Of a stretch of 64,000 nucleotides of DNA, positions 415 to 14,212 are shown in pieces. The notes below the pieces were generated by a model. It was not told the origin of the DNA and made no database searches. It saw only the letters and a list, made by a program, of their open reading frames with translations. The stretch spans positions 1 to 64,000 of the forward strand of contig JAGWWS010000008.1 of NCBI GenBank assembly GCA_018970255.1. The letters run 5' to 3'. The DNA comes from Verrucomicrobiota bacterium. GTDB taxonomy: Bacteria; Verrucomicrobiota; Verrucomicrobiia; Chthoniobacterales; Terrimicrobiaceae. The first letter of the stretch is position 1; the number at the start of each line of letters is the position of its first letter. A program made the position numbers and the translations under genes.

Positions 415-481
415 TTTAAGACCCCGCAAAACAAACTTTTCTGATTCCAAAAAGGATTTTTACGCATGAAATGTGACCAGC

Positions 482-1930
482 CTACGATTGGATCGCCTTC
501 CGATCCCAAGTCCAATTTAACTCCGGTCGAACGGGCCCCGGTTCCTTGCCGTGGTAGGATCCGATAGCACGGGGAGCAAGGTCTTTAACATCGATGGAAA
601 TGGAATCGGACTCCATGTGCACGACCTTATTGCCATTCTCGACCACCAAAATACGAACAGAGTAGCAAAGCTCGTTGAAAAGATTCGCGGGAATGCGGCA
701 AGTTAAACGATAATCGCCCACTTCCGGATACTCCGCCCAAACACAACCCGAAGTAAAGGCCACTTCTTCCTGCTCAGTCAAGAAATGCAGGGTAACATGG
801 ACTTGTGATTTTTGGAAGACCCGGCATTCGATTTCCACATTCACCGGTGTCTTTAAATCAAACAGGGAAGAATCTTGCCCATCCGTGCGGAGCGACACGG
901 CGCGGATCGATTTGATTTTTAGGACATCGCTACCGGGAGCTTCGTCCCAGCTTTCCCAAACCCTCTCGTGCGAGGTGGCTCCGCTTTTGGCGAGGTATTT
1001 TTGAACCGCCTCCACCGTGCCACCAGAGAAATCTACCCGCCCGTGTTGCATCACCACGCACCGGCTGCAGAGGGACTGCACCGCTGTCATATTATGACTG
1101 ACGAAGAGAATCGTGCGGCCATGGCCGGCGACATCCTTCATTTTGCCCAGGCATTTTTTTTGGAACTCCGCGTCGCCCACCGCCAAGACCTCGTCCACGA
1201 TCAAAATCTCCGGCTCCAAATGCGCCGCGACGGCGAACGCGAGCCTCACATACATCCCGGAGCTATACCGCTTCACCGGCGTGTCGATATACCGCGCACA
1301 CCCGGAAAACTCGACAATCTCATCAAACTTCCGCGCAATCTCGGCCTTCCGCATCCCCAAAATCGCCCCGTTGAGGAAAATGTTCTCGCGACCCGTCAAT
1401 TCCGGATGGAACCCCGTGCCAACCTCCAGCAATGAAGCAATCCTCCCCTTCACCTTGATCCGCCCCTCCGACTGCGTCGTCACCCGCGAAAGAATCTTGA
1501 GCAAAGTGGATTTGCCGGCCCCATTCCGCCCGATGATGCCGAGGACCTCCCCGCGCTTCACCTCAAACGAAACATCCTTGAGCGCATAGACCCAGTCCGA
1601 AGGCGCAGCCTTCGGAGTAACGAGTGGCGAGTAACTGGTGGCGGGTGCAGAAGCGCCTGTCGGCGCTGTAAGGGGTAACTGGTGGCGAGTGGCGGGTTCA
1701 GAGGCGGATTGGTTTTCACTCGCTACACGCAACTCGCTACTCGCTACAGCCTGCTTCGCAGGCTTCGTCCGATCATTCACCTCCCCGATTTTGAGATACG
1801 GATCCTCCTTCCCCCGAACCTTGTGCCACCACCGATTCACATCATGCGCCAGCGACCCCGTGCCGACTTCCCCCAAACGATACAACTTCGACACCCCCTC
1901 CACCCGAATCACAACATCCCGATCACTCAT
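482..1930 (-). CDS. wzt: Wzt-type ATPase of a polysaccharide/O-antigen ABC exporter (intact copy)
   Basis: ATP-hydrolysing subunit of an ABC-2 polysaccharide exporter at the inner membrane; its permease partner is encoded at 13347-14210. Visible motifs: Walker A GRNGAGKS (about 134-141), signature region YSSGM (222-226), Walker B ILIVDE (242-247) and H-loop VSHN (278-281). Residues ~320-482 form a Wzt-type C-terminal beta-sandwich that in this family recognises the glycan end. Odd feature: residues ~56-110, between the first strand block and the Walker A block, are a low-complexity Ala/Ser/Thr stretch encoded by simple repeats and absent from normal family members. The start overlaps the ORF6N stop by 4 nt. 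It is the only undamaged wzt in the window. Confidence 0.9.
   Translation of the reverse strand: MSDRDVVIRVEGVSKLYRLGEVGTGSLAHDVNRWWHKVRGKEDPYLKIGEVNDRTKPAKQAVASSELRVASENQSASEPATRHQLPLTAPTGASAPATSYSPLVTPKAAPSDWVYALKDVSFEVKRGEVLGIIGRNGAGKSTLLKILSRVTTQSEGRIKVKGRIASLLEVGTGFHPELTGRENIFLNGAILGMRKAEIARKFDEIVEFSGCARYIDTPVKRYSSGMYVRLAFAVAAHLEPEILIVDEVLAVGDAEFQKKCLGKMKDVAGHGRTILFVSHNMTAVQSLCSRCVVMQHGRVDFSGGTVEAVQKYLAKSGATSHERVWESWDEAPGSDVLKIKSIRAVSLRTDGQDSSLFDLKTPVNVEIECRVFQKSQVHVTLHFLTEQEEVAFTSGCVWAEYPEVGDYRLTCRIPANLFNELCYSVRILVVENGNKVVHMESDSISIDVKDLAPRAIGSYHGKEPGPVRPELNWTWDRKAIQS
1613..1760. repeat. simple-repeat insertion inside wzt
   Basis: Repeats of the kind 'gagtggcgagtaactggtgg' (1625-1700) and 'actcgctac' (about 1718-1746) fill the stretch that encodes the non-conserved linker of Wzt. 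The same 'gtggcgagtaactggt' text recurs at about 12540-12560, just upstream of a wzt 5' remnant. The insertion keeps the reading frame. Confidence 0.6.
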
Positions 1931-2469
1931 TTTCCGCGCTTAATGACATGTTTGAACTTGAGAACCGCAAAGTTCAACTCGATTGAAGTCTCGGTGTCGC
2001 TCGTGTGAAGTTCATCCTCGAACAGCTCAGAAACCAGTTCGCCGCTGCGTTGCAGCAACGGCTTTTGCGCAGCTTCTTCTTTTGTGGACGATAATGTCGT
2101 GATAGTTCGCGAAAGCTCGCGGATTTTTGCAAAGGTTTCGATGATCGTAAATGTCGCCTCTGTGGCTTGTGGACTCTTCAAAATCGTTGCCAGCATGTAG
2201 AGGCCTTTTTCAGGAAAGGCTGTAGGGGGTTTCACTTTGCCGCCCCGCTTTGAAGTCGAAAATTTCGACTTCAAACCAACCCACTCATCTTTTGATATTT
2301 GTATGAGGTATCCTTCGGGAAATTTCTCTGGATTGTTTTTAACAGCTTCGTTGATTCGTTTGGTTTCCACTCCATAGATCAACGCCACATCTTGATCCAA
2401 TAGCACTTTCTGACCTCGTATTTCCAAGATGCTTTCTTGGATTATTTTTACATCAAGTGGCTTATTCAT
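1927..2469 (-). CDS. ORF6N-domain protein (intact copy)
   Basis: A 180-residue protein. Residues ~10-100 match the ORF6N pattern ('IRGQKVLLDQDVALIYGVET', then 'NPEKFPEGYLIQIS', then 'FPEKGLYMLATILKS'). ORF6N is a DNA-binding domain common in phage and mobile-element proteins, related in use to KilA-N. The C-terminal part is helical and probably coiled. Its stop overlaps the wzt start by 4 nt, so the two are probably translated together. Two degraded relatives lie at 10632-10994 and 12164-12310. The cellular role is unknown. Confidence 0.8.
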   Translation of the reverse strand: MNKPLDVKIIQESILEIRGQKVLLDQDVALIYGVETKRINEAVKNNPEKFPEGYLIQISKDEWVGLKSKFSTSKRGGKVKPPTAFPEKGLYMLATILKSPQATEATFTIIETFAKIRELSRTITTLSSTKEEAAQKPLLQRSGELVSELFEDELHTSDTETSIELNFAVLKFKHVIKRGK

Positions 2470-2511
2470 ATTGCGATTGTTTTGATTTTTCCTGCTCCCC
2501 TACCCGCCCAT

Positions 2512-2750
2512 GCTGGCGATGAGGTGGGGCATGGCAAGGCGATAGAGCTTGTGACCCAGGCAAGGTTGGGAACCTGCGCGGGAATCGAGGTGCTGGGGTG
2601 CACCGAGAAAGACTGCCATTAGGCAGCTCCGAAGGAGGAGCAAGGCGGGAACCTTGTGAATCAAACTCCCGCGAAGGTAGCCCGCAGGCTGAGACGCCAA
2701 GGGCAAGGCGCGAATCAAACATTTTCAACGCGAATGACGGTGTCGGACAT
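2512..2750 (-). pseudogene. wzt 5' remnant (copy f) broken by repeat insertions
   Basis: From ATG 2750 the frame reads MSDTVIRVENV, the start of Wzt. It is then interrupted by about 170 bp containing two short palindromic elements (around 2609-2640 and 2671-2694) and picks up again near 2540 as a piece resembling KLYRL before losing homology. Copy a (12355-12523) carries a related insert at the same place. No functional product is expected. Confidence 0.7.
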
Positions 2751-2755
2751 GGTTG

Positions 2756-2795
2756 GAGGGTCGAGGGTCGAGGGTCGAGAGACGAGAGTCGAGCC
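2756..2795. repeat. heptamer simple repeat (cgagggt/cgagagt)
   Basis: About five tandem copies of a 7-bp unit immediately upstream of the start codon of wzt remnant f. The same unit occurs at the same position relative to remnant b (11133-11164). Confidence 0.75.
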
Positions 2796-2921
2796 CAGTG
2801 AAGTAGGTTTCACACTTCACGGGCCAGGGCTTCGAGGCAAAGCGCCGGAAGCGCAGTGGAGAGTTGCTGGTAACGAGTCATGCGTAATCAGCGACCAACC
2901 ATTCGAGCCAAAAGCATTGGT

Positions 2922-3284
2922 TTAAATTGGCAAAACTCGCACCTTGTTCTTGTTTGCCGCAAGTGTGACGATTGCACCTTTGAGTAATTCTCTTTGGAAT
3001 TGTTTCAGCAGTTGCAAAACTAATAATCCTATGATCTCTGGAGTCGGATCCTCCACTCGGGCTTGAATCACGCTGGGCCCATCGGATTTGGTTTGTGCAA
3101 GCAAAGTGCCGAAATCCAAATCATGCGTGAACACGATCCAGCCACGATCCAAAGCATACGAAAAAATCTCGGAATCTTCAGCATCGCACGCGCCGATCGT
3201 AGTCCAATGGATGGAATCCACCCCATGCCCCTCAAAGAAAATGACCCAATCTGGTGTCAAGCAGGCATCGACCAGGATTTTCAT
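2922..3284 (-). CDS. DUF5615 PIN-like protein, probable toxin
   Basis: A 120-residue protein with the early Asp (MKILVDACL) and the 'THDLDFG' segment typical of DUF5615, a PIN-like nuclease fold. Such proteins are usually paired with a DUF433 protein, as here: the upstream gene overlaps by 4 nt. By family analogy it would be a toxin RNase held in check by the DUF433 partner. Activity is not shown by the sequence alone. Confidence 0.8.
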   Translation of the reverse strand: MKILVDACLTPDWVIFFEGHGVDSIHWTTIGACDAEDSEIFSYALDRGWIVFTHDLDFGTLLAQTKSDGPSVIQARVEDPTPEIIGLLVLQLLKQFQRELLKGAIVTLAANKNKVRVLPI

Positions 3285-3502
3285 GCCGGCTGCAGCTCGG
3301 CATCGAACGCCTCAGACAGCCAACATGCATACGATAGAGCGGCAGAGATATCCTCGTTCTCCAAATACGGGTAAAGTTTCAAAATCTCCTCCCGGGATCG
3401 CCCAGCGGCCACAAGGCCGGCAATCGTTCCCACAGTAATGCGCATTCCTCGGATGCAAGGCTTCCCGCCCATAACCAGAGGGTTTCTTGTAATTCTTTCC
3501 AT
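3281..3502 (-). CDS. DUF433 protein, probable antitoxin
   Basis: A 73-residue protein with the DUF433 signature 'GGKPCIRGMRI' (about 12-22) followed by a helix-turn-helix-like region containing 'SREEILKLYPYL'. This family is the usual partner of DUF5615 proteins and probably binds both toxin and its own promoter. It overlaps the downstream DUF5615 gene by 4 nt. Upstream is A/T-rich spacer. Confidence 0.8.
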   Translation of the reverse strand: MERITRNPLVMGGKPCIRGMRITVGTIAGLVAAGRSREEILKLYPYLENEDISAALSYACWLSEAFDAELQPA

Positions 3503-3527
3503 AGTATTTTTTGTAGGTTTTTTAAAA

Positions 3528-3650
3528 TTAAAAACAAATCATTTTGCAAATTTTCCCCGTCGCCTGCACGATCTCCAGCACATCGGCTTCAGGAATCTTT
3601 CGTAAATCCTTCTTGGTGGATTTACGCCATGTGATCGTGAAGGATACCAT
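3528..3650 (-). pseudogene. truncated RelE/ParE-like toxin (40 residues)
   Basis: Starting at ATG 3650, inside the end of the antitoxin gene, a 40-codon frame reads 'FTITWRKSTKKDLRKIP', the N-terminal strand and helix of RelE-type mRNA interferases. It then ends at 3528 in A/T-rich sequence, less than half the usual ~85-95 residues. The catalytic C-terminal strands are missing, so the toxin should be inactive. The overlap with the antitoxin is normal for such operons. Confidence 0.65.
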
Positions 3651-3825
3651 CTTTTCGAAGATTCGCGAGAAATTCATTGTGAGGAATTAGAGGCTCATCA
3701 CGCCTCTCAGCCATAGTAGCCAAATCCTCTATGTCCTCCATGAATCGTATGTAGTCTTCCCAAGGCACGATGACCGCCGTTTTTTGCCCTTCTTCGTTCG
3801 TGAGATATTGCAGAGAACTACTCAT
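3622..3825 (-). CDS. type II antitoxin-like protein
   Basis: A 67-residue acidic protein ('EEGQKTAVIVPWEDYIRFMEDIEDLATMAERRDEP') with the shape of Phd/RelB-type antitoxins: an N-terminal DNA-binding strand-helix part and an acidic toxin-wrapping tail. Its partner toxin (3528-3650) is truncated, so it now stands as an orphan antitoxin. It may still repress its promoter or counter a relative elsewhere in the genome. Confidence 0.65.
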   Translation of the reverse strand: MSSSLQYLTNEEGQKTAVIVPWEDYIRFMEDIEDLATMAERRDEPLIPHNEFLANLRKDGILHDHMA

Positions 3826-3910
3826 ATTTTTTGTCTAAGCCGATTTTATTACCAAGTCAAGCTGTGACCCCGTCATCAGCTAAGCTCTATTCGCCATCCG
3901 CAATCGGCCA

Positions 3911-4594
3911 TCAGGCCCCTCCGCTATCCGTCCTCGGCCGCTGGGCGGCCCTCGCCTTGGGATTTTTTGAAATAGGGAGGCCACTGACTTGCGAGATTGG
4001 CAAGGTGATCAAATCGAAAGGAATTGGCGTTCCATCAACCAGAACAAAATTGGCGGGCCGGGCATCGAAAATGGCGACCTCCAATGATCGACCAACCCAT
4101 GCAAAGCGTTTTCCCGGAAGGGGAATGAATCCATATAGATTCATGAAATCCGCGATCTGTCTTTCATCTGGGAGTTCACCCAAGAGCGGCTCTTGGTGAA
4201 TGAGAATCGAAAAATCGCCGTTTGCCGTTTCCAAAATGCCGGAGACTTTTGTGATGGCTCCGAACAATTTGTTGTGGAGCGACCAGCGATCCAGAAAACG
4301 AACTGTTCTCCCAAAACTGCCGCCATAGGTTGCTTTTCGAACGAGCTGACATTTTGCATCGTTCCAAACAAGATGTTCGAGACCCCCGATGCGGGCCTCT
4401 GCTATCCAGAAGCTTTCGCGGTATCTTCTTCCGGCTCTCTCTGCCCATTCGAGCAGGGCTCCTCGTTGGGCGAGCATTTTTGAGCCTTTTCCACCTGCAT
4501 CCAAAATCGCTCGGATGTCATTGGCGGCTGTTTCCGGATCAATTCCAGTATTCCCTGCGGGCTCGATAAGATTTTTTCCATTTCCATGAATCAT
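3911..4594 (-). CDS. kinase-like protein of the polyvalent-protein type
   Basis: A 227-residue protein. The segment 'VAIFDARPANFVLVDGTPIPFDLI' (about 172-195) looks like the catalytic/metal region (D-x-x-x-x-N ... D) of the small kinase-like domain found in phage and conjugative-element polyvalent proteins. Upstream, 'GRRYRESFWIAEARIGGLEHLVW' and 'LLDRWSLHNKLFG'-like text fits the preceding lobe. It stands alone on the minus strand beside the 42-bp array. An origin in a mobile element is likely; substrate unknown. Confidence 0.5.
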   Translation of the reverse strand: MIHGNGKNLIEPAGNTGIDPETAANDIRAILDAGGKGSKMLAQRGALLEWAERAGRRYRESFWIAEARIGGLEHLVWNDAKCQLVRKATYGGSFGRTVRFLDRWSLHNKLFGAITKVSGILETANGDFSILIHQEPLLGELPDERQIADFMNLYGFIPLPGKRFAWVGRSLEVAIFDARPANFVLVDGTPIPFDLITLPISQVSGLPISKNPKARAAQRPRTDSGGA

Positions 4595-4771
4595 TTAGCT
4601 TTTGAGATTGGCAAAGTCAATGGGGCGCCTCGGGCGCTGTGGCGGACATTTGGAAGAAAATGCTGAAAAGCTGAAATTCTGAAAGGGGACCGGCCTTTGG
4701 CCGATGGCGGATAGCTGAGGACGGAGGGCGGAAAAAGAAAAAGGGCGCGGGGCAAGCATGAACCAGTGAAC

Positions 4772-5251
4772 TGGTGCTCCCTTTTTCGGAACTCGTGTTC
4801 GCTCGGAGCAAACCGCTGTTCTCTTTTTCAGAACTCATGTTCCCTCGGAGCAAACCGCTGTTCTCTTTTTCAGAACCCGTGTTCCCTCGGTGCGAACTGC
4901 TGTTCTCTTTTTCAGAACTCGTGTTCCCTCGGTGCGAACTGCTGTTCTCTTTTTCGGAACTCGTGTTCCCTCGGAGCAAGCCGCTGTTCTCTTTTTCAGA
5001 ACTCGTGTTCCCACGGAGTGAACTGCTGTTCTCTTTTTCTGAACTCATGTTCCCTCGGAGCGAACCGCCGTTCTCTTTTTCAGAACTCGTGTTCCCTCGG
5101 AGCGAACTAATGTTCTCTTTTTGAGAACTCGTGTTCCCTCGGAGCGAGCCGCTGTTCTCTTTTTCGGAACCCATGTTCCGTCGGAGCGAACTGATGTTGC
5201 CTTTTTCAGAACCCGTGTTCCCTCGGAGCAAACTGCTGTTCTCTTTTTGAG
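4772..5251. repeat. 42-bp tandem repeat array, about 11 copies
   Basis: Imperfect head-to-tail units of 42 bp with no spacers. Each carries the dyad 'gttctctttttcagaac' followed by 'tcgtgttccctcggagc'. Because 42 is a multiple of 3, several frames stay open on both strands (e.g. a 14-residue SSEKENSSSLRGNT-like repeat on the minus strand from a TTG near 5231, and RSKPLFSFSELVFP-like on the plus strand), so an open frame alone is not evidence of coding. It ends ~260 bp before the XRE gene. Confidence 0.9.
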
Positions 5252-5287
5252 ACGGCCGGGGCTGAAGTCGAAAAAAAGTGAAAAAAG

Positions 5288-5316
5288 TTGTTGCATGGGT
5301 GGCGGGCGATATTAGA
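5288..5316 (+). promoter_or_regulatory. possible sigma70-type promoter of the XRE-ImmA operon
   Basis: TTGTTG (5288-5293), a 17-bp spacer and ATTAGA (5311-5316) lie upstream of the XRE gene. The -10 match is weak. The following ~195 bp to the chosen ATG at 5511 would be the leader. Confidence 0.3.
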
Positions 5317-5510
5317 TTGCTCGCATGTTAGCGATCAATCCAATATACCGCAGCTTGTGGCCGGTCGGCCTGAGAGGCCCACAGAATGGGCTTGCCAGGG
5401 CGTTTCGGGTTGGCGGGGTCGTGGACATATCACAGATCGGCATGGTGGCGGGGCGGCATCATACGATTTTCAAATCCGCCCTTTTTATTACAGATCCAAA
5501 AAAGAACCCA

Positions 5511-5873
5511 ATGAGAAAAAACACACTCGGGGAATTCATTCGGCAACGCCGGGACGCGCTGGAAATGAGCCAGCGTGAATTGGCAAATTTGCTGAAATTG
5601 AAGGCCTCTTCGCATATCTGCGATGTGGAAAACGGCTACCGCCAACTGGGCGAGGAACACCTCCAAGCCTTGGCCGATGCCCTCCAAGTGAGTCTGGAAG
5701 AAATCCAAGCGCACGACCCGCGGGCTCCTCTCTCGGAAGCGAGGGAGCTCCTGGAGCAGAAACCGGAATACATCCATGCGTTGAACCGCGTGATGCGCCG
5801 GGCTCCGTTGCTCAGCCCGGAGGAATTGATTCGTCGCGTCGAACAACCATCCCACACCGAAAACCCACCATGA
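5511..5873 (+). CDS. XRE-family helix-turn-helix regulator
   Basis: From ATG 5511 the 120-residue product begins 'MRKNTLGEFIRQRRDALEMS', the start of a Cro/C1-type HTH (residues ~5-62). An upstream in-frame ATG at 5325 would add 62 residues unlike any part of this family, so the inner start is preferred. It overlaps the ImmA/IrrE-type gene by 4 nt; this pair is a common regulator-protease unit in mobile elements, in which the peptidase cleaves the repressor or acts as a toxin. It is oppositely oriented to the surrounding wzt remnants. Confidence 0.85.
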   Translation: MRKNTLGEFIRQRRDALEMSQRELANLLKLKASSHICDVENGYRQLGEEHLQALADALQVSLEEIQAHDPRAPLSEARELLEQKPEYIHALNRVMRRAPLLSPEELIRRVEQPSHTENPP

Positions 5874-6628
5874 GAAACTACACCATTCCAAACAGTGACC
5901 TCACCCACAGGGTGAACTATTCGCGCCGGGAGATCGAGCGCATGGCCTCGGACGAGCTGCGACAAGCGAAATGCCTGCCGGAGGAGCCGCAACCGATCGC
6001 TTGGGAAAAATACCTGCGGCGGGCCCACAACAATCTCCAGCCAAGGATCGAGGATCTGCCCGAGGGGGAACTCGGGCATGCGATCTTGGCCGATCCGTTC
6101 AACCCGCAGATCGTGATCGCGCGGGCTGTCTTCGAGGGCTCGATGGCGCGCTACCGGAGCACCTTGGCCCACGAGATCGGCCACTTGGTCCTGCACCGGC
6201 ATTTGTTTTTGGAGCGGGAGCTGCCGGCATACTTGGAAAAACGGCGCCGGGGCGGGCTTCAGCGGGGCTTTGCCTGCGGAGCGGCGGAGATCAATGAAAA
6301 CCCGAGGGCGCCGCTGCACAAGGACGACCCGCTTTTTCATTTGGAATTCCAGGCGAATGTTTTCATGTCGTGCGCCACGGTGCCGGAAAAACTCCTGCGC
6401 GTGCTGCTCGCGCCGCACATTCGCGCGCAGACCCAGCGTGGCGGCGGCAAAATCGAGGGTATCGACGATGCGGTCCGCCCGGCGTGCGTGGACCTGATCG
6501 CCTCGACTTTCGAGGTGAGCCGGACGCTGGCGGGCTACCGCTTGGAGGCCATTTTTCCCAAAAACACTTTCCCGAAAAGCCCCGTCCCAGCCAGCACAGG
6601 TGTGTTGGAAGCCGGATGGTTGTTTTGA
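5870..6628 (+). CDS. ImmA/IrrE-family metallopeptidase
   Basis: A 252-residue protein with the zinc motif HEIGH (about 101-105) and a downstream 'FHLEFQANVFMS' segment that supplies the third ligand in this family. IrrE/ImmA proteins cleave XRE-type repressors, and the directly overlapping upstream gene encodes one. It probably acts in the cytoplasm. The start is fixed by the ATGA overlap with the XRE stop. Confidence 0.88.
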   Translation: MRNYTIPNSDLTHRVNYSRREIERMASDELRQAKCLPEEPQPIAWEKYLRRAHNNLQPRIEDLPEGELGHAILADPFNPQIVIARAVFEGSMARYRSTLAHEIGHLVLHRHLFLERELPAYLEKRRRGGLQRGFACGAAEINENPRAPLHKDDPLFHLEFQANVFMSCATVPEKLLRVLLAPHIRAQTQRGGGKIEGIDDAVRPACVDLIASTFEVSRTLAGYRLEAIFPKNTFPKSPVPASTGVLEAGWLF

Positions 6629-6649
6629 GGGAATAACCACAAAAACCAT

Positions 6650-7135: not shown

Positions 7136-7180
7136 AACACTCGCGAGAGTGCCCTTCAACAAGGGATTCGAACTACTGCG

Positions 7181-7220
7181 GACGGTCGGGAACTGATCCT
7201 TCCCGGCCGTCTTTGTTTTT
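7181..7220 (+). terminator. rho-independent terminator of the XRE-ImmA operon
   Basis: A 12-bp stem (GACGGTCGGGAA / TTCCCGGCCGTC, one wobble) with an 8-nt loop, followed by TTTGTTTTT. Confidence 0.9.
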
Positions 7221-7510
7221 ACCTGCGCTAACCCCGACAGGAAATCTGACGCGATTTTTTTTGTTTCCAAGAAATTTTTTGGGATTTTTTTAAGGCGCGC
7301 CGGGGAGGGCGCGTGCCGGGGGACGGGATGGGTTGGAAGGCGGCGAGAGGCGATGCGGGATCGCCGTCATATTGTGACTGACAAAGAGAATCGTGCGGCC
7401 ATGGCCGGCGACATCCTTCATTTTGCCCAGGCATTTTTTTTGGAACTCCGCGTCGCCCACCGCCAAGACCTCGTCCACGATCAAAATTTGGTTTGCGCTT
7501 ATCCCAAGTC

Positions 7511-7545
7511 GCAAAGCCCTTCGGGCCTGCCTGCGGCAGCCTACC
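7511..7545. repeat. short palindromic element, copy 3 (variant)
   Basis: Contains the core CTGCCTGCGGCAG flanked by 'cccttcggg'; it lies within the insertion before Walker B of wzt copy e. Confidence 0.7.
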
Positions 7546-7652
7546 TCGGCGCGCCCGGCACCTCGGTTCAGGCTCCAAATGCGCCGCGACCGCGAACGCA
7601 AGCCTCACATACATCCCGGAGCTATACCGGTTGATTCGCTCGCTCCCGCTCA

Positions 7653-7682
7653 TCTCACCCTTCGGGCTGCCTGTGGCAGTCT
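7653..7682. repeat. short palindromic element, copy 1
   Basis: A 30-bp unit beginning TCTCACCCTTCGGG with core CTGCCTGTGGCAG. It lies inside wzt copy e and is repeated 49 bp further on (7702). Confidence 0.8.
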
Positions 7683-7701
7683 TTCTCCCGTTGGTCGATT
7701 G

Positions 7702-7731
7702 TCTCACCCTGCGGGCTGCCTGCGGCAGTCT
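7702..7731. repeat. short palindromic element, copy 2
   Basis: A 30-bp unit beginning TCTCACCCTGCGGG with core CTGCCTGCGGCAG; a direct repeat of the element at 7653. Confidence 0.8.
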
Positions 7732-8602
7732 TCCGAGCGGCTGCCCCGCCGCCTGGGTCACCGGCGTGTCGATATACCGCGCACACCCGGAAAACTCGAC
7801 AATCTCATCGAACTTCCGCGCAATCTCGGCCTTCCGCATCCCCAAAATCGCGCCGTTTAGGAAAATGTTCTCGCGCCCCGTCAATTCCGGATGGAACCCC
7901 GTGCCGACCTCCAGCAACGAAGCAATCCGCCCCTTCACCTTGATCTGCCCCGAACTCTGCGTTGTGACCCGCGAAAGAATCTTGAGCAAAGTCGATTTGC
8001 CCGCCCCATTCCGCCCGATGATGCCCAGAACCTCCCCCCTCTTCACCTCGAACGAAACATCCTTGAGCGCGTAGACCCAGTCCGAAGGCGCTTGCGCCTT
8101 CGGCGCGGAGTTATCAGATTTTTTACCGCAGATTTCGCTGATTTTCGCAGATTCGGAATTCAAACCATTTTGGCTCCCAGTAGCGCTGGGGGCATTCGCG
8201 GAGCGAATGGAGGCGGGTTTTTCGGAGTCCATCTGCAAGCCCGCTTGCGAGTGGCCCTCCAAAAACTCGCCAGAATCAGCCCGCTGATTCCCGCCCACGC
8301 CCCTCTCTGTGTGCTCTATGTCCTTTGACTCGGTCGCGCCCACTCCCTCGCCCTTCGGGCCAATCTGCGATTGCTCCATCTCGCATCTGCCCCGATGCTC
8401 GGTTGTGGTTAAACTTCTTTTCTTTGTGCCGCTAACGGACTTCGTCCGATCATTCACCTCCCCGATCTTCAGATACGGATCCTCCTTTCCTCGAACCTTA
8501 TGCCACCACCGATTCACATCATGCGCCAGCGAACCCGTCCCCACCTCGCCCAAACGATACAACTTCGACACCCCCTCCACCCGAATCACAACATCACTCA
8601 TG

Positions 8603-8896
8603 TTATTTCCTAAAAGTTCCAAAGCTGGGCTTGCGGGCGTTGTGCCGCACGACAAGGATTCGAATCGCATCTAATTTTATCCGGAACAGGAAATTGTATG
8701 GAAATCGATTAAGGTTCACCCGGCGAAACCCGCGTTTTTTTTCGCTGAACAGTTGCGGGGAATTGGCAGCGAGGCGCACACAGTTTCGAAACTCCTCGTA
8801 AAATTCGTCGGCAAGATTGGATCCAGCAACTTCCTCATAATACCTCATGATCAAATCCACTTCCGAGAACACTCTCGGATGAAAGACAATATTCAC
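8603..8896 (-). CDS. ParE/RelE-family toxin
   Basis: A 97-residue protein with the ParE pattern: '[18 protein letters not shown]' at the N-terminus, then '[26 protein letters not shown]' at the C-terminus. Members inhibit gyrase or cleave mRNA; which applies cannot be told here. It overlaps the upstream antitoxin gene by 4 nt, and its stop is 1 nt before the start of wzt copy e. Confidence 0.85.
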
Positions 8897-9117
8897 CGCG
8901 TCCTTCTGGCCGAAATTTTTTGGTCCATTTGCTCCAAGGTCACGCCCAACCCGGGATTGGTTTCCATTTCCAGATCGCGCTTTACGGCTTCGGAAATTCC
9001 TTCGTCCTCATCCAAAAAAAGAGGCGGCAGAGAGTGTAGCATGTGGAGCGCTAACTCCGCTCGCTGGGATTCCGGAAGCTCCAAGGCAAGTTTTTCTACG
9101 CTATCGAGGGTGGTCAT
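8893..9117 (-). CDS. addiction-module antitoxin of the ParE partner
   Basis: A 74-residue acidic protein ('LALELPESQRAELALHMLHSL'), typical of the small addiction-module antitoxins encoded just before ParE-like toxins. The 4-nt overlap and order antitoxin-toxin agree. The C-terminal 'DLEMETNPGLGVTLEQMDQKI' would wrap the toxin. Confidence 0.8.
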   Translation of the reverse strand: MTTLDSVEKLALELPESQRAELALHMLHSLPPLFLDEDEGISEAVKRDLEMETNPGLGVTLEQMDQKISARRTR

Positions 9118-9155
9118 GAATTTGAGATATTAAAGTTGATCAGTGATGGGTTCAA

Positions 9156-9232
9156 GTTCTCCCCGAGGAATCACTCTGCACGGGCGTGTCGATGAATTCC
9201 CGAATCTCGGCAAAGTCGATTTGATTCGCGCC
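9156..9232 (-). pseudogene. internal wzt remnant (copy d)
   Basis: About 20 codons read 'FAEIREFIDTPVQ', matching '[18 protein letters not shown]' of intact Wzt with an internal deletion. It is preceded by the motif gcgaatcaa that also marks element borders in the other copies. Confidence 0.55.
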
Positions 9233-9233
9233 T

Positions 9234-9428
9234 TCAGGCTGCGGCCAATACTTTCGAATCGATCAAATGGACCAGGGCATTCACCAATTGATTTTTTTGC
9301 TTCACGATGGATTGGCCGGGCTGGGCTTTTTTCTCCAAACAGATGCCCAGAGTTGGTTCACTCACGCGGATCAGTCGATTTCCCTCGGCTAAGCGGGTCA
9401 GTTCGATTTTCAGGTTTTCGATTTTCAT
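9234..9428 (-). CDS. small hypothetical protein (64 residues)
   Basis: Reads 'MKIENLKIELTRLAEGNRLI' and ends 'VNALVHLIDSKVLAAA'; amphipathic, no signal or membrane segment. An ATG 8 codons upstream exists (9452), but the inner start is favoured. No family recognised. It sits between a wzt remnant and the 98-residue gene and may be part of a small accessory cassette. Confidence 0.4.
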   Translation of the reverse strand: MKIENLKIELTRLAEGNRLIRVSEPTLGICLEKKAQPGQSIVKQKNQLVNALVHLIDSKVLAAA

Positions 9429-9492
9429 AAGTTTAAAATCCCATTTTTCCAATCCAACTCAACAAAATCTCTGGAGTCGGGTATCCATACTG

Positions 9493-9789
9493 CTAATAAG
9501 CCTCTTGGGGCAGTTTTTCGAATCCAGATTCATTCAACTCCATCACGGACTCCGGCGGTTCATCCAACGCAACGGCAAGAGACTCCAAAACTTCGTGATA
9601 AATCGAGATGCCAACCTCCCTCTCGTCCAAATCGCTGGAAATCTGAATCGTGATCCGCTTACCTTCAATAATAGCTTTCGCGAGCGCAGGTCTGCCGATC
9701 GGATCGAGCATTTTTCCCTCAATCCCGACAATCTCCGAAATGAAGTGCCCGGATGGAAAAGTGAGATTCGCAAAAGCCTCAAAGTTCAT
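9493..9789 (-). CDS. hypothetical protein with HEVLE motif (98 residues)
   Basis: A 98-residue acidic protein. 'VGISIYHEVLESLAVALDEPP' contains HExxE, reminiscent of but not matching the HExxH of small zinc peptidases, and is followed by 'ELNESGFEKLP'. Its ATG overlaps the stop of the 37-codon wzt-derived frame by 4 nt, suggesting translational coupling. Function unknown. Confidence 0.5.
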   Translation of the reverse strand: MNFEAFANLTFPSGHFISEIVGIEGKMLDPIGRPALAKAIIEGKRITIQISSDLDEREVGISIYHEVLESLAVALDEPPESVMELNESGFEKLPQEAY

Positions 9790-9899
9790 TTCGCGTCCTC
9801 CACCCGAATCACAAAAGCCCAGATACCCATAAAAATTTTCTTCAGCGGTGCGCTATTATCATCGGATACATTTTCAACGTGAATAACTACATCACTCAT
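9786..9899 (-). pseudogene. wzt 5' remnant (copy c), 37-codon frame
   Basis: ATG 9899 opens a frame reading MSDVVIHVENVS (the Wzt start), unrelated sequence, then 'FVIRVEDAK', a second match to the Wzt start. It ends in ATGA overlapping the next gene. It may now serve only as a coupled leader. Confidence 0.65.
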
Positions 9900-9933
9900 T
9901 TTTTGAAAAAACTCACTTCTGCAGGATTCCACA

Positions 9934-10164
9934 TCAAGCGTGAACCAGCTCGGCTTCGAGCGGTTGGCCGGGCTTCAATTGGCTAACGCCCTCTACTGCA
10001 AATCCTAAAATATTACCTTGCTCATCGACCCGCTCCATGAGGTTGATGTTTGGTGTTTCGCGAAAATATCCAGGGGCATCGGAAAAGCGAACCTCCAAGA
10101 AGTCGGCTTCCGCGTCGAACCAGATTTTTAGTTTTTCTGCAATAGGATTTTTCCTTGTTTGGGT
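9934..10164 (-). pseudogene. DUF2283-family remnant without a start codon
   Basis: The open frame contains 'KIWFDAEADFLEVRFSD' and 'MERVDEQGNILGFAVEGVSQL', matching the two halves of DUF2283, a small protein of unknown role often beside toxin genes. Between the upstream stop (10165-10167) and the domain there is no ATG, GTG or TTG, so the gene seems to have lost its 5' end, unless ATT is used. Confidence 0.6.
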
Positions 10165-10359
10165 TTATAAATTATCACAACCCGTTATCTTGCAGCGCTA
10201 TCCCAGAGTCGGCCATGATTACATTCGTAAGAATGACAGAATGTCCGCTGTTTGTCATTGAAGAACAATGTTTTTTCAAAGAAACGATTTTCCGCAGCCG
10301 CCAAGCCAGAACTAGCACTACTTTTAGTCGCTGCGGCATTTTTTATCAAAACCTAAATG
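10165..10359. other. intergenic, nothing recognised
   Basis: A 55-codon minus-strand frame from ATG at about 10339 is present but matches nothing known to me. No repeat or terminator seen. Confidence 0.4.
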
Positions 10360-10575
10360 TCATGCTCCCAGTGGCATATTTTCTCCGGGCACTGGAGTCC
10401 AGTGCACTTTCCGGTTCCACTCTTGGGCTTCTTCAGGGGTTAACTCCCTTCCTCCCATGGCTATGATCCATTGGTCGAGTTCTTCGACCGTGGGATTGGC
10501 CGCAAGCAGTGGAATGAAATTGGCGAGCGTGGACGAATTTCTAGTTGGCGAGGAAGTCTGCTTTGATTTGTTCAT
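10360..10575 (-). CDS. small hypothetical protein (71 residues)
   Basis: Reads '...NPTVEELDQWIIAMGGRELTPEEAQEWNRKVHW...'. Soluble and acidic, with the proportions of an antitoxin or small regulator. It overlaps the end of the preceding frame (10541). No family recognised. Confidence 0.45.
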   Translation of the reverse strand: MNKSKQTSSPTRNSSTLANFIPLLAANPTVEELDQWIIAMGGRELTPEEAQEWNRKVHWTPVPGENMPLGA

Positions 10576-10690
10576 GGTTGGATTGGAATGTCGAAATGGC
10601 GAGTGAGAAAACTTGCTTGGGACTCAAGTCATCATACCAGATTTTTTGGAGGAGTCCGCCTTTTTTTCCCAATATGTCCTGATGCGTGCA
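10541..10690 (-). pseudogene. 3' part of an unknown gene fused behind an ORF6N remnant
   Basis: A frame containing '[20 protein letters not shown]' ends at 10541 inside the start of the 71-residue gene, a normal two-gene overlap. Its 5' end is replaced by the ORF6N remnant, so only the C-terminal ~45 codons of the original gene are left. Confidence 0.45.
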
Positions 10691-10994
10691 CAGCACGCTC
10701 TGAATTGAGCACCGCTGCCAACATGACTGCTCCATGCTCGGTGAATGCAAAAGGGAGAGCTCGTCGTGCCCCGCCCCAACTTGAAATCACAGATTGTGAT
10801 TTCAAGTTTGCAGCCTCCTCGGCTGTAAGTTGAAACATGAACCTGCTCGGAAATCTTGCAGGGTTTCGTTTAACCGCTTGATTCAAAGCTCGTGTTTCAA
10901 CGCCGTAAATCTCGGCAAGGTCCGAAGCGAGCATAACCTTCTCACCTCGAATGAAGTGAATTCGGCTCTGGAGCAGTTGTATTCTTGCGAGATT
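10632..10994 (-). pseudogene. ORF6N gene remnant 1
   Basis: The frame reads '[20 protein letters not shown]', '[20 protein letters not shown]', then '[16 protein letters not shown]' and '[21 protein letters not shown]', the full ORF6N core. It has no ATG at the expected place (ATC where copy 2 has ATG, plus a 1-nt loss) and no C-terminal half after ~10690. Codons after that belong to other sequence. Confidence 0.75.
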
Positions 10995-11036
10995 TTAGTC
11001 AGAAAGTGGTTTGCATCATTTGCTTTATCAAAAGGG

Positions 11037-11126
11037 ATTCACATCAGGCGCGAGCGAACCGGTGCCGACCTCCCCGAGGCGATAGAATTTTGATACATTT
11101 TCAACGCGAATGACGGTGTCGGACAT
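11037..11126 (-). pseudogene. wzt 5' remnant (copy b)
   Basis: From ATG 11126: MSDTVIRVENVSKFYRLGEV and on to a residue run ending DVN, then a stop within two codons. Homology to Wzt ends exactly where ORF6N remnant 1 flank begins. The same break point after 'VN' occurs in copy a. Confidence 0.75.
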
Positions 11127-11132
11127 GATTGG

Positions 11133-11164
11133 AGAGTCGAGAGTCGAGAGTCGAGAGTCGAGGG
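11133..11164. repeat. heptamer simple repeat (gagtcga)
   Basis: Four-plus tandem copies of a 7-bp unit immediately upstream of wzt remnant b; the same unit occupies the same position beside remnant f. The remaining bases to 11273 hold nothing recognised. Confidence 0.75.
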
Positions 11165-11273
11165 CTGGCGGAAGATGTGTAGTCGAGTTGGCGAGTGAAA
11201 CGCTTCGGACTAGGTCAGGACGTGGGTAATACAGAGGATCCTGAAAGATTCGTCTGCAGCGCTTTGGAACTTT

Positions 11274-11708
11274 TTAAACCAAGGGGTTCCAGACTTTTTT
11301 GAAACCGAAGTCGCTAAAGTGCTTGATATTCACAGTTGCAAAGGATTCCACCCCATGCTGTCGCAGCGTCAACGCCAGGCGTGCATCAATGATATGTCGA
11401 TATCCGGCATTACTTTTGGAAACATACTCCCATAGCTTCTCGGAAACTGCAGGATCATAATCGATGCAACGCCAATCGGGGTTGGATTTCAGCGCGTGGC
11501 AGTATCCTGCCGCTTCGGCAGCGGTGTATGGCTTTTTGAAAACTGCGGGGTTGCGAAGCAAAATGAAAATCTCCACAAGGACCAATTCGCACACCACAAA
11601 TTCCTCGCCTTGGGTTTGCACACGATCAAAAAACGCTATTGCCTGATCATGCGAGCGGGAGTCCGGATCAGCAGCATAGATAAATAAATTGGTATCAGCT
11701 GTTAGCAT
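11274..11708 (-). CDS. PIN-domain toxin, VapC-like
   Basis: A 144-residue protein beginning 'MLTADTNLFIYAADPDSRSH', with the first PIN acidic residue at D5, an internal 'ELVLVEIF' Glu region, and late Asp in 'IIDARLALTLRQHG'. PIN toxins are RNases that cut tRNA or rRNA. The upstream RHH-type gene overlaps it by 14 nt. The module lies between internal and 5' wzt remnants. Confidence 0.85.
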   Translation of the reverse strand: MLTADTNLFIYAADPDSRSHDQAIAFFDRVQTQGEEFVVCELVLVEIFILLRNPAVFKKPYTAAEAAGYCHALKSNPDWRCIDYDPAVSEKLWEYVSKSNAGYRHIIDARLALTLRQHGVESFATVNIKHFSDFGFKKVWNPLV

Positions 11709-11964
11709 TTTCGGAATTCGTGAATCGCTCTTCTATGGCCAAGGATTCCGCAGGACTCTCGGAAATATCCTTCAAATGACCACCACTGCCTCGCAAAACG
11801 GGAAAAGACCAGGTCTCGGGCTTGGCGGGGGTGTTTGGAAAGGTGCTGGCATACGACTCCATCCCCCTGCGAACCAGTTCCGCAAAGGACCAATCTCTTT
11901 CATCGGCGATTCGCTTTAGGCGATGAAGCAAGGGTTCCGGCAGTTGAATTTGCGTTCTAATCAT
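11695..11964 (-). CDS. ribbon-helix-helix antitoxin of the VapC-like toxin
   Basis: An 89-residue protein. The N-terminus 'MIRTQIQLPEPLLHRLKRIA' is a ribbon-helix-helix DNA-binding strand and first helix, followed by 'ELVRRGME'. The C-terminal tail would bind the toxin. It overlaps the toxin gene by 14 nt. Confidence 0.8.
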   Translation of the reverse strand: MIRTQIQLPEPLLHRLKRIADERDWSFAELVRRGMESYASTFPNTPAKPETWSFPVLRGSGGHLKDISESPAESLAIEERFTNSENANS

Positions 11965-11999
11965 GACATCAATCTGTATTAGCCATCATCTTGATGTCA

Positions 12000-12163
12000 A
12001 GCTCTATTTTTTCTGCACGAGGCAGGCTTGGGATTTTTTTCCAAAATGTCCTTGGCGGCTTGGAAAACCTCATCCAAATCAAAACAATTGGAATTATCGC
12101 CGTTGCCACGGCGAAACCCAAGCGCACAGACATCCCGGAGCTATACAGGTTGATTCGCTCGCT
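12000..12163 (-). pseudogene. internal wzt remnant (signature to Walker B region)
   Basis: The frame fused to ORF6N remnant 2 continues '[20 protein letters not shown]', matching the Wzt signature region. A diverged, frameshifted Walker B stretch follows (nucleotides aligning to ILIVDEV...). The [11 protein letters not shown] junction is the same site at which copy e carries an insertion. Confidence 0.7.
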
Positions 12164-12310
12164 TGGAAATCTTGCAGGGTTTCGTTTAACCGCTTGATTT
12201 AAAGCTCGTGTTTCAACGCCGTAAATCTCGGCAAGGTCCGAAGCGAGCATAACCTTCTCACCTCATATGAAGTAAATTCGGCTCTGGAGCAGTTGTAATT
12301 CTTGCGACAT
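12164..12310 (-). pseudogene. ORF6N gene remnant 2 with in-frame stop
   Basis: ATG 12310 gives MSQELQLLQSRIYFI, then a TGA in place of the CGA seen in remnant 1, then '[20 protein letters not shown]'. It ends at 'ARFP' where the wzt piece begins. Its upstream flank (to ~12380) is nearly identical to that of remnant 1. Confidence 0.75.
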
Positions 12311-12354
12311 TTTAGTCAGAAAGTGGGTTGCAACATTTGCTTTATCAGAATGGA

Positions 12355-12523
12355 TTCACACCATGCGCCAGCGAACCCGTCCCCACCTTGCCGAGGCGAC
12401 AGGGTTTGTGACCCAGGCAGGAGGGAACCTGCGCGGGAGACTGCCGAAGGTAGCCTGTAGGGTGAGACGCCAAGGGCAAGACGCGAATCAAACATTTTCA
12501 ACGCGAATGACGGTGTCGGACAT
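12355..12523 (-). pseudogene. wzt 5' remnant (copy a) with palindromic element
   Basis: ATG 12523 opens MSDTVIRVENV. About 90 bp with a palindromic element (12438-12467) follow, then '[16 protein letters not shown]' and loss of homology. Of all remnants this is nearest to wzm, so it may mark the original position of wzt. Confidence 0.7.
12438..12467. repeat. short palindromic element, copy 4 (inverted)
   Basis: The complement of the 30-bp unit at 7653, with changes in the core (CTACCTTCGGCAG). It interrupts wzt remnant a. Confidence 0.7.
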
Positions 12524-12612
12524 GGTAAGTGACGAAGAAGTAACGGGTGGCGAGTAACTGGTAGAGGGTTTTGGAAAGGCAGGTAGGCGGGATATTCCAA
12601 CGAGAAACTTTT

Positions 12613-13131
12613 TTATTCAAGTCCGAGACTCTTAGCCCAATTCAACCATGTTTCTGCCAAGCCATGATGCTTTATAATTTCTGTGAATTTAGGCACTTGG
12701 AAATCTTTCAGGGAATAAAGATAGACCACACGAGCTCGGTCTTTGGGACGCCCCACTGTAAGTGCGATGGCCGCCAAGTATTCGGGTGTCATCACCCGAA
12801 TGGTATGTCCATCCCAATGCAAGATAACTGCGTTATTTACGGCCTCAGTCTCAAGCTCGTTAGAGGCCGCCAGAAACTGAACTGGCATGCCATGGATAAC
12901 AATGCCTTCTTCGTCAAACTCGGAGAAACCCAACTCGGAAAGCTTTTTGAAAATAGGCTCCAAGCTGACTAAAGACGAGCCTTCCGGAACATTTAAAAAG
13001 CAAAAAACATCGATGTCCCGGGTAGCAAGCGGTTCTCCATGAAAACCCGCCGCTGTCGCTCCGCCTATTGCGTATTTTACTACAACACCTCCCGCGAGAA
13101 GCTGTTCTAAAACATCACAAACCTTTTGCAT
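12613..13131 (-). CDS. nucleotidyltransferase-fold protein, possible toxin
   Basis: A 172-residue protein. 'AIGGATAAGFHGEPLATRDIDVF' (about 21-43) is a nucleotidyltransferase GG...DxD motif of the MNT/AbiEii-like class. The rest fits a small NTase with a C-terminal helical part. It overlaps the upstream 66-residue gene by 17 nt. Such pairs can be toxin-antitoxin or abortive-infection units; the target here is unknown. Confidence 0.7.
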   Translation of the reverse strand: MQKVCDVLEQLLAGGVVVKYAIGGATAAGFHGEPLATRDIDVFCFLNVPEGSSLVSLEPIFKKLSELGFSEFDEEGIVIHGMPVQFLAASNELETEAVNNAVILHWDGHTIRVMTPEYLAAIALTVGRPKDRARVVYLYSLKDFQVPKFTEIIKHHGLAETWLNWAKSLGLE

Positions 13132-13315
13132 GTCGCTTGATTTCCTCTAATTCCAATGTCTCTAAAATCGTTTGCCCCAAAAGTGCTACCTTTTCACCGA
13201 TGGGCAGATTTCTTTGTTTTTGCCTCCAATTTGTTTTTTCTCGCATCCACAAAATGCCTTCAGAATTCGATCGTGAGGAAGCTTCGAACTTTTGATCGTT
13301 GATTTTTTTCTCCAT
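13115..13315 (-). CDS. small partner of the nucleotidyltransferase (66 residues)
   Basis: From ATG 13315: basic and helical, with 'WMREKTNWRQKQRNLPIGEKVALLGQ'. Such short proteins often precede NTase-like genes, and the 17-nt overlap supports co-translation. A longer frame upstream overlaps wzm in the opposite sense of function and is not favoured. Likely antitoxin or accessory; inference only. Confidence 0.55.
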   Translation of the reverse strand: MEKKINDQKFEASSRSNSEGILWMREKTNWRQKQRNLPIGEKVALLGQTILETLELEEIKRHAKGL

Positions 13316-13346
13316 TGAAAATAAGACTCCGAGGCACTCGACCAAC

Positions 13347-14210
13347 CTACACAGTGTCCATGAAAGTCTTCTCGACGCGTTTGAACATGACGATGCCGAG
13401 GAACAGGAGGACGATAGTAACCGCGGCGGAAATTCCCAAGCCATCCCACGGAATGGAGCCACCGAGGTAGATGGCGCGGAAGGTCTCGATGACCGATGCC
13501 ATTGGGTTCAAATTCAGCAGGTGGGCGTATTTTTCCGGCACCATGCTGGCGGGGTAGATGACGGGTGTGGCATACATGGCGAGCTGGACCCCGAATGAAA
13601 CCAAGAATGTAAAATCACGGTATTTTGTTGTGAGGGAGGATATAATTATTCCCGCCCCAAGACCGAGCAGTGCCATGAGGCCGAGAAGAAGGGGTGTCAG
13701 AATGAAAACCAGAGGCCAGTTGGGAGAAATGGGAGCCCCTTTCCAGGCGAACCAGCCGAGGAAGGCGAAAAAGAGCAAAAACTGGATCGCGAATTGGATG
13801 AGGTTCGAGATGACAATCGAAAGCGGTGTCACCAATCGTGGAAAATAAACCTTTCCGAATATCCCTGCATTGGAGAGGAATGTGGATGATGTTTTTGTGA
13901 GACAGGTGGAAAAATAATTCCACGGCGTGATGCCGGCGAGGTAGAAGAGCATCGGAGGCAGGCCGTCGGTGGGGAGTTTGGCGAGACCGCTGAAAATCAC
14001 CGTGAACATGGCTGTGGTGAGCAGTGGTTGAATAAAAAACCAGAGCGGGCCAAGGATGGTTTGCTTGTAAACCGCCACGAAATCCCTGCGCACAAACATC
14101 CAGAGCAAATCCCGATACCGCCACACATCGCGCAATTCGAGGTCCCACCAACGCGTGTTGGGGTTCAGGACCATGTCCCAATTTTCGTTTTCGGCGGTTC
14201 CTGTGTTCAT
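13347..14210 (-). CDS. wzm: ABC-2 type permease of a polysaccharide exporter
   Basis: A 287-residue inner-membrane protein with six hydrophobic segments. The N-terminal 'ELRDVWRYRDLLWMFVRRDF' and 'YKQTILGPLWFFIQP' are hallmarks of Wzm/RfbD permeases exporting O-antigen or capsule chains. Partner ATPase: wzt at 482-1930, now displaced by the accessory island; in this family the two are normally adjacent. The GbsR-like regulator gene lies 2 nt upstream, so they probably share a transcript. Confidence 0.92.
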   Translation of the reverse strand: MNTGTAENENWDMVLNPNTRWWDLELRDVWRYRDLLWMFVRRDFVAVYKQTILGPLWFFIQPLLTTAMFTVIFSGLAKLPTDGLPPMLFYLAGITPWNYFSTCLTKTSSTFLSNAGIFGKVYFPRLVTPLSIVISNLIQFAIQFLLFFAFLGWFAWKGAPISPNWPLVFILTPLLLGLMALLGLGAGIIISSLTTKYRDFTFLVSFGVQLAMYATPVIYPASMVPEKYAHLLNLNPMASVIETFRAIYLGGSIPWDGLGISAAVTIVLLFLGIVMFKRVEKTFMDTV

Positions 14211-14212
14211 TG

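What the first reader, a model, noticed from the sequence alone, without database searches (positions are those of the whole stretch)
482..14210. Toxin-antitoxin cassettes seem to have inserted repeatedly at the 5' end of wzt, regenerating that end each time
wzm (13347) and intact wzt (482-1930) should be adjacent but are 11.4 kb apart. In between, six sequences start with the Wzt N-terminus (starts 12523, 11126, 9899, 8601, 2750 and the functional 1930). Each lies just downstream of a different small accessory gene: NTase pair, VapBC, DUF2283 remnant, ParE module, DUF433/DUF5615, ORF6N. This looks like serial insertion into the same gene with a fresh 5' end carried by or created with each insert, as islands do at tRNA 3' ends, but in a protein gene and with toxin-type cargo. 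What is seen: the order and the homology. Mechanism is inference; no integrase or transposase is visible.
Basis: partly seen in the sequence, partly recalled or inferred. Interest (0 to 1): 0.85.

Follow-up and report, generated by a model that had tools for sequence, protein, structure and literature searches.

The report
Toxin-antitoxin pile-up inside glycan-export operon
In an uncultured bacterium and its relatives, toxin-antitoxin genes have piled up between two neighbouring sugar-export genes, with broken starts of the second gene left among them, as if newcomers had used that gene as a landing strip.

Summary
A seventh remnant sits at 9820-9797. By tool kinship and a record title, the genome is near Terrimicrobiaceae (Verrucomicrobiota). 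Same-genus genomes have similar arrays: five type-A starts in G010, two each in G011 and G012, and a separate wzt lineage in G003. Of 75 other named loci kept (a capped list), one has a second start.

Of 33 modules examined, 22 have a wzt start just downstream. Upstream pieces vary: wzt ending at codon 24 to 276, or a wzm 3' end. wzt starts form two classes that differ 42% over the first 19 codons but 13-18% afterwards, and both occur in one genome. The ORF6N module still carries the 3' end of a foreign wzm, joined into an old wzt start.

Best reading: repeated one-sided capture of wzm-TA-wzt DNA, anchored by homology in wzt and joined illegitimately at the other end, like Vibrio immunity-gene arrays with reversed polarity. 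A tRNA-type site-specific island is not supported. Duplication plus deletion remains a serious rival.

The parts
13347..14210 (-). wzm (type A), permease of glycan ABC exporter
   Evidence: 82-88% identical in G003, G009, G010, G015
12613..13312 (-).
   Evidence: wzm-module-wzt start shared with G010 and G003; no credible HMM or PDB match
12353..12523 (-). wzt start copy C1: codons 1-11, inserted repeat, codons 18-32 (class II)
12077..12301 (-). ORF6N fragment joined to internal wzt piece (codons 212-244)
11274..11964 (-). Module 2: RHH-like antitoxin (sub-cut-off) + VapC-type PIN toxin
   Evidence: TIGR00028 1.9e-24, PF01850 1.6e-6, PF01402 0.0025
11031..11126 (-). wzt start copy C2: codons 1-32 (class II), joined to ORF6N leader
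   Evidence: same codon-32 joint in C1 and G012, read by eye
10632..10982 (-). Module 3: truncated ORF6N gene
   Evidence: PF10543 1.5e-28; 169-aa relative in G012
9934..10575 (-). Module 3b: small ORF plus DUF2283-like remnant
   Evidence: DUF2283 E 0.083 only; 93% DNA match to G015 over 128 bp
9864..9899 (-). wzt start copy C3: 12 codons
9234..9820 (-). wzt remnant VIRVED (9820-9797) fused to two small ORFs (9493-9789, 9234-9452)
   Evidence: 91% DNA match to G011 L047 8283-8868
9161..9220 (-). internal wztC piece at left end of ParE module; joint with the 9234 ORF at CGCGA
8603..9117 (-). Module 4: addiction antitoxin (weak match) + ParE-like toxin
   Evidence: PF09720 0.0071, sub-cut-off; PDB ParE2 3.5e-4; 94-95% DNA match to two G010 copies
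7359..8601 (-). wzt copy C4 (class I start): near-full ABC domain, inserts, frame break, match ends at codon 284
3911..4594 (-). Kinase-PolyVal-like ORF, array module shared with G012 and G011
   Evidence: PF18762 2.7e-4, sub-cut-off; 88% DNA match to G012
2922..3825 (-). Module 5: RelB-like antitoxin, DUF433 + DUF5615 pair
   Evidence: PF18506 2.5e-6, PF04255 4.2e-25, PF18480 7.7e-21
2549..2750 (-). wzt start copy C5: codons 1-11 (class II) plus inserted repeats up to KLYR
2499..2548 (-). 3' end of a wzmC gene (RLAMPHLIASMGG-stop) joined into C5; the two parents share CCGCCTCG there
   Evidence: 88% to G010 wzmC 3' end; 0 of 1000 mononucleotide shuffles
1927..2469 (-). Module 6: 180-aa ORF6N gene, stop overlaps wzt ATG
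   Evidence: PF10543 4.4e-29; PADLOC PDC-S05 2.6e-76
482..1930 (-). intact wzt (class I start; repeat-built linker, codons 57-110)

Best explanation
The wzm-wzt gap is an acceptor site built by repeated one-sided DNA capture. Shown: in this genus TA or small accessory genes lie between wzm and wzt at several loci, and many modules are followed by wzt starts, which fall into two main sequence classes. Inferred: a linear fragment from a relative, carrying [wzm 3' end or older wzt debris]-TA-[wzt 5' end and body], recombines by homology within the conserved wzt body, while its other end is joined illegitimately, often inside the resident wzt start. The exporter ATPase gene stays whole with a new 5' end, a TA module is added upstream, and the old 5' end is stranded further upstream. 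Serial events leave a fossil series. Stranded wzt copies decay by deletion and repeat insertion, while TA modules may persist because losing a TA locus is costly. This is homology-facilitated illegitimate recombination (HFIR), the process proposed for Vibrio effector-immunity arrays.
For: (1) Asymmetric boundaries in 33 modules from 7 genomes: with wzt-start queries 23 of 33 had a start within 300 bp downstream (22 without one weak match); with full-length queries 20 had a wzt piece on the right, its best match beginning at codon 18 or earlier in 18 of 20; on the left 21 of 33 had a wzt or wzm piece within 260 bp, matches ending at codons 24, 28, 32, 32, 37, 41, 88, 183, 197, 211 (x3), 244, 259, 276 (each query's own numbering) or being a wzm 3' end (6). 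(2) Mosaic wzt starts: class I vs II identity 57.6% over columns 1-57, then 86.9% and 81.8%; breakpoint test reached by at most 19 of 2000 shuffles in 13 of 15 pairs; class I branch supported 100/100. (3) Both classes occur in the window, G010 and G012, and same-genome different-class pairs are no closer than cross-genome ones. (4) The ORF6N module carries a wzmC 3' end joined into stranded start C5, where both parents share CCGCCTCG. (5) Presence/absence: the 9234 ORF is followed by a wzt start in G011 but by wztC piece-ParE-wzt in the window, with CGCGA shared by both parents at the joint. (6) Family outgroups G017 and G020 have wzm and wzt adjacent (22-24 bp).
Against: 10 of 33 modules have no wzt start downstream (11 without the weak match) and 12 of 33 no wzt or wzm piece upstream. 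FitAB-type VapBC and a VapB tail plus leader occur with the same limits in front of different wzt lineages, so some TA units moved without a wzt end. The class I 5' block (57 columns, 98.1% within class) sits behind three different toxins, which one-sided capture alone does not predict. The wzmC-C5 joint could equally be a deletion inside an older array. Two microhomologies are too few to test. At least one G010 unit is a plain duplication (97%). In the G011 comparison the old start was replaced, not stranded. Two of 15 class I-II pairs failed the breakpoint test (137 and 224 of 2000). The 33 modules came from loci chosen for having wzt or wzm. ComEC is in 16 of 16 genus genomes but also in 10 of 14 control genomes, so it says little about competence. 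No strain-level before/after pair was available.
Confidence: 0.5

Rival explanations
1. Old duplications plus deletions: whole wzm-TA-wzt sets of several lineages were placed side by side by ordinary transfer or unequal exchange, and deletions then cut the wzt copies, leaving starts next to TA genes that resist loss.
For: G010 carries wzmC-VapBC-wztC, wzmA-NTase-wztA and another wzmA within about 22 kb; unit [wztC piece-UnsAT-ParE-wzt start] occurs twice in G010 at 97%; C4 and a G010 copy keep much of the ABC domain; in G003:C41 a wzt start is joined directly to codons near 170.
Against: Same-genome copies of different class are not close relatives, so not simple tandem copying here; many stranded copies are cut near their start; outgroups have single adjacent pairs.
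Confidence: 0.3
2. A site-specific or targeted mobile unit inserts TA modules at the wzt start and regenerates it.
For: Start-proximal right ends in 18 of 20; the class I block is nearly identical behind ParE and two ORF6N genes.
Against: Left ends share no site; no integrase among 20 scanned ORFs; window 1-14300 has no megablast match in plasmids or phages, and the two start patterns are absent from viral contigs; transposase-like genes in the G010 array, recognised by eye, look secondary.
Confidence: 0.08
3. TA genes alone are inserted illegitimately into the wzm-wzt gap; selection for translation of wzt keeps joints at the start codon; wzt starts multiply later by recombination.
For: FitAB VapBC shared by G003 and G009 from 38 bp upstream to 3 bp past its stop codon, in front of different wzt lineages; ATGA overlaps.
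Against: Does not by itself explain stranded starts of two classes in one array, or the wzmC 3' end in front of ORF6N.
Confidence: 0.12

Closest known systems
Orphan immunity-gene arrays of Vibrio cholerae T6SS clusters (Kirchberger et al. 2017, PMC5361080; passages seen)
   Same: One conserved anchor, serial additions, displaced remnants kept, heterogeneous modules, copies in one genome not each other's closest kin; HFIR proposed there too
   Different: Here the anchor is an exporter ATPase gene, the cargo is TA modules, and the stranded pieces are 5' ends upstream of the anchor rather than 3' pieces downstream
Rhs orphan tips / C-terminal displacement (mentioned in the PMC5361080 passages; otherwise recalled)
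   Same: Homologous core with displaced fragments piling up
   Different: Opposite polarity; the displaced part is a 5' end and the cargo is not part of the anchor protein
HFIR in transformable bacteria and E. coli conjugation (abstract start of PMC3240628; older work cited in the passages)
   Same: One homologous end, one illegitimate end
   Different: Known from experiments on single events; here inferred from a natural series
TA-rich genomic islands and island insertion at tRNA 3' ends (recalled)
   Same: TA cargo, host gene end restored
   Different: No integrase seen, no matching left and right sites

Membership tests
HFIR-built arrays | one end of each added piece homologous to the anchor gene | tested here: met
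   wzt start on the right in 22-23 of 33 modules; mosaic breakpoint near codons 17-19; not seen for the rest
HFIR-built arrays | other end non-homologous and variable in position | tested here: met
   left pieces end at many codons or in wzm 3' ends
HFIR-built arrays | short microhomology at the illegitimate joint | tested here: inconclusive
   8 nt and 5 nt at two joints with both parents known; no statistics possible
HFIR-built arrays | copies within one genome not each other's closest relatives | tested here: met
   for different classes; exceptions: the four same-genome same-class pairs (mean 91.0%), among them the G010 ParE units
HFIR-built arrays | DNA uptake in the host | tested here: inconclusive
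   ComEC family in 16 of 16 genomes but also 10 of 14 controls
Site-specific genomic island | integrase or recombinase in the element | tested here: not met
   none among 20 window ORFs scanned
Site-specific genomic island | same attachment sequence at both ends | tested here: not met
   left ends differ
Tandem duplication array | copies in one genome most alike | tested here: not met
   between classes 76% both within and between genomes; met for the G010 ParE pair (97%)
Integron cassette array | attC sites and IntI | not tested
   no attC search run
Type II TA modules | paired antitoxin-toxin genes of known families | tested here: met
   VapC with RHH-like partner in the window; FitAB and Phd-PIN pairs and a PemK toxin in relatives, besides AbiEi/AbiEii and a HEPN-MNT pair of other TA types; toxicity not testable here; not met for the 12613 gene

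The most novel reading that the evidence does not exclude
The first 50-60 bp of wzt act as a true recombination hub: an unknown system joins TA modules at the wzt start codon of glycan-export operons, so the class I block is nearly identical behind three different toxins while the wzt body behind it diverges.
Probability: 0.08. Interest if true: 0.85.

Novelty: new variant of a known kind. Interest (0 to 1): 0.55.

Why it matters
The array is a readable record of successive gene captures at a surface-glycan exporter, possibly a phage-receptor locus, in bacteria with little genetics. It suggests how TA genes can accumulate in chromosomes without an integrase, by travelling with a conserved neighbour gene. 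Strain-level sampling within this genus could test this directly.

Tried and rejected
tRNA-type site-specific insertion: rejected for lack of a shared left site and of an integrase among the scanned ORFs. Mobile vehicle: window 1-14300 has no megablast match in plasmids or phages, and the two wzt-start patterns have none in viral contigs. Assembly artefact: unlikely, because joints recur in separate genomes, though contigs of G009, G010 and G015 end inside wzt or a wzt start. A universal wzm-wzt oddity: not supported. One search kept the best 80 of 196 candidates (79 loci); four are same-genus contigs by length; among the other 75 (genus not checked one by one), 70 had a wzm hit upstream, 46 of these with a gap of 200 bp or less, and 1 of 75 had a second wzt start, at 63%. 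Gap genes in 15 of these loci were looked at; three look by eye like four-helix-bundle genes and several like sugar-modifying genes (labels recalled, not scanned). The repeat in wzt leaders was first thought genome-wide; one form is nearly confined to the arrays.

Literature: searches showed no account of TA arrays at wzm-wzt in their listings; no paper in the library holds both 'homology-facilitated illegitimate recombination' and 'toxin-antitoxin'. Passages were seen from PMC5361080, PMC3493377 and PMC12457778; other papers only as listings and abstract starts.

Rows dropped: the tree left out 2 of 14 wzt starts (C1 and G012_KinPV, split by inserts); the breakpoint test used 10 of 14 rows; C3, C5, G003 and G015 starts were too short for the 14-row alignment. 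In one search the W_RelB match (30%, E 0.019) is disregarded, leaving 22 of 33.
Full report
What is there. The window is contig C48 of a 2.56-Mb genome. Reading the minus strand, wzm (13347-14210) is followed by 11.4 kb of small genes and wzt debris before the intact wzt (482-1930). There is also a seventh remnant at 9820-9797, whose G011 counterpart still reads MSDRDVVIRVGDTK. Debris is not limited to 5' ends: internal wzt pieces lie at 12175-12077 and 9220-9161, and the copy at 8601 runs to codon 284.

Cargo. HMM-supported window genes are a VapC-type PIN toxin with an RHH-like partner, a RelB-like gene plus DUF433-DUF5615 and two ORF6N genes, one truncated. The 180-aa ORF6N also fits the PADLOC candidate PDC-S05 at 2.6e-76. 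The ParE-like toxin has PDB support (ParE2, 3.5e-4) and its partner a weak antitoxin match. In relatives the same kind of interval holds FitA-PIN, Phd-PIN, PIN_3, PemK, AbiEi-AbiEii, a HEPN-MNT pair, DUF4258-DUF2283 and a DUF6036 gene.

Recurrence. Searches show five type-A wzt starts in G010, and two matches each in G011 and G012, with shorter remnants besides. In G003 a different wzt lineage (B) has stranded starts cut at codons 24 and 28. In G024, another genus of the family, a start cut at codon 37 precedes a small gene pair whose second protein is DUF5615-like (E 0.0092, sub-cut-off). Of 17 wzm places in 11 genus genomes, one was not read and one lies at its contig end; of the other 15, 11 have small accessory genes beside wzm and four (G004, G005, G006, G007:C176) have none that I recognised (several labels by eye). 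Outgroups G017 and G020 have wzm and wzt adjacent. Among 75 other named loci of a capped list, 46 of the 70 with a wzm hit have gaps of at most 200 bp, and 1 of 75 has a second start.

Boundaries. For 33 modules in seven genomes (chosen because wzt or wzm was near, so the fractions are not base rates), start queries found a wzt start within 300 bp downstream in 23, one of them weak. With full-length queries the right flank had a wzt piece in 20, the best match beginning at codon 18 or earlier in 18. Left flanks had a wzt or wzm piece in 21, at widely different codons or as wzm 3' ends.

Mosaic starts. Fourteen starts were aligned. Class I (ATGAGTGATCGGGATG...) and class II (ATGTCCGACACCGTC...) agree at only 57.6% over columns 1-57 but at 86.9% and 81.8% in the next two blocks. 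Within class I the first 57 columns agree at 98.1% and the rest at 91.0% and 86.0%; within class II the first 36 columns agree at 95.6% and the later blocks at 84.7% and 80.4%. In 13 of 15 class I-II pairs the breakpoint test was reached by at most 19 of 2000 shuffles, with the break at columns 48-60; the other two gave 137 and 224 of 2000. The class I branch has 100/100 support. Same-genome different-class pairs average 76.1% (14 pairs) and different-genome different-class pairs 76.6% (45), so copies of different class did not arise by recent copying in place; the four same-genome same-class pairs average 91.0%, and 28 different-genome same-class pairs 87.5%.

Two joints with both parents known. 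First, window 2499-2548 is the 3' end of a wzmC gene (0 of 1000 shuffles), joined into stranded start C5 where both parents read CCGCCTCG (the window itself has two changes there); ORF6N and the intact wzt follow. That is the anatomy expected if a wzmC-ORF6N-wzt fragment was captured with wzt as the homologous anchor. Second, the 9234 ORF runs into a class II start in G011 but into wztC piece-antitoxin-ParE-wzt in the window, with CGCGA shared by both parents. Here the old start was replaced rather than stranded.

Results against. FitAB VapBC has the same limits in G003 and G009 in front of different wzt lineages. A VapB tail plus leader ends at the start codon of wztA in G011 and of wztC in G010 (twice) and G012. 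The class I block stands behind three different toxins. One G010 unit is a duplication. So TA-only joints and ordinary duplication also took part, and each observed joint could be a later deletion. The confidence in one-sided capture is therefore moderate.

Comparison with known systems. Vibrio T6SS immunity arrays were explained by the same process with an upstream anchor and displaced 3' pieces (PMC5361080, passages). Here the polarity is reversed and the anchor is an exporter ATPase gene. I found no report of TA arrays at wzm-wzt in the listings. I rate it a new variant of a known kind.

Noticed in passing
7500-7760 and 12408-12468; L048 about 2920-3140; L046 about 8385-8520: A palindromic REP-like element (core GGGCTGCCTGCGGCAGTCT) or its relatives sit inside wzt copies, in G012 and G010 inside the Walker A region. 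With up to 2 mismatches the core has 9 hits in G000, 9 in G010, 5 in G003 and none in G005, G017 or G020.
   Followed up: partly
12539-12556, 1616-1633 and G000:C67:4296-4313: A short repeat of wzt leaders and the wzt linker (CACTCGCCACYCGTTACT, 1 mismatch) has 3 hits in this genome: two in the array and one at the junction of two genes that look by eye like pseB and pseC; all 5 hits in G010 and the one in G003 are in arrays.
   Followed up: partly
1601-1762: The intact wzt has a linker (codons 57-110) built of simple repeats that differs among the copies and genomes read; in G003 it is a long run of ATRHSPL units.
   Followed up: partly
4723-5336: Tandem array with a 42-bp period, at least ten copies, inside the region.
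   Followed up: no
5325-7135: Three plus-strand genes (HTH, M78 peptidase with a weak CapP match, unknown) lie against the direction of the array.
   Followed up: no
1927-2469: The ORF6N protein matches PADLOC candidate defence family PDC-S05 over its full length, E 2.6e-76.
   Followed up: no
L045 6245-7431, 10941-12107, 13594-14892: Transposase-like genes (IS3-like, another IS family, IS630-like; recognised by eye) interrupt the G010 array, apparently later; the last stretch is also in L046 at 98.8%.
   Followed up: no
1-482: The contig begins 482 bp beyond the end of the intact wzt, so what lies downstream of the exporter genes cannot be seen.
   Followed up: no
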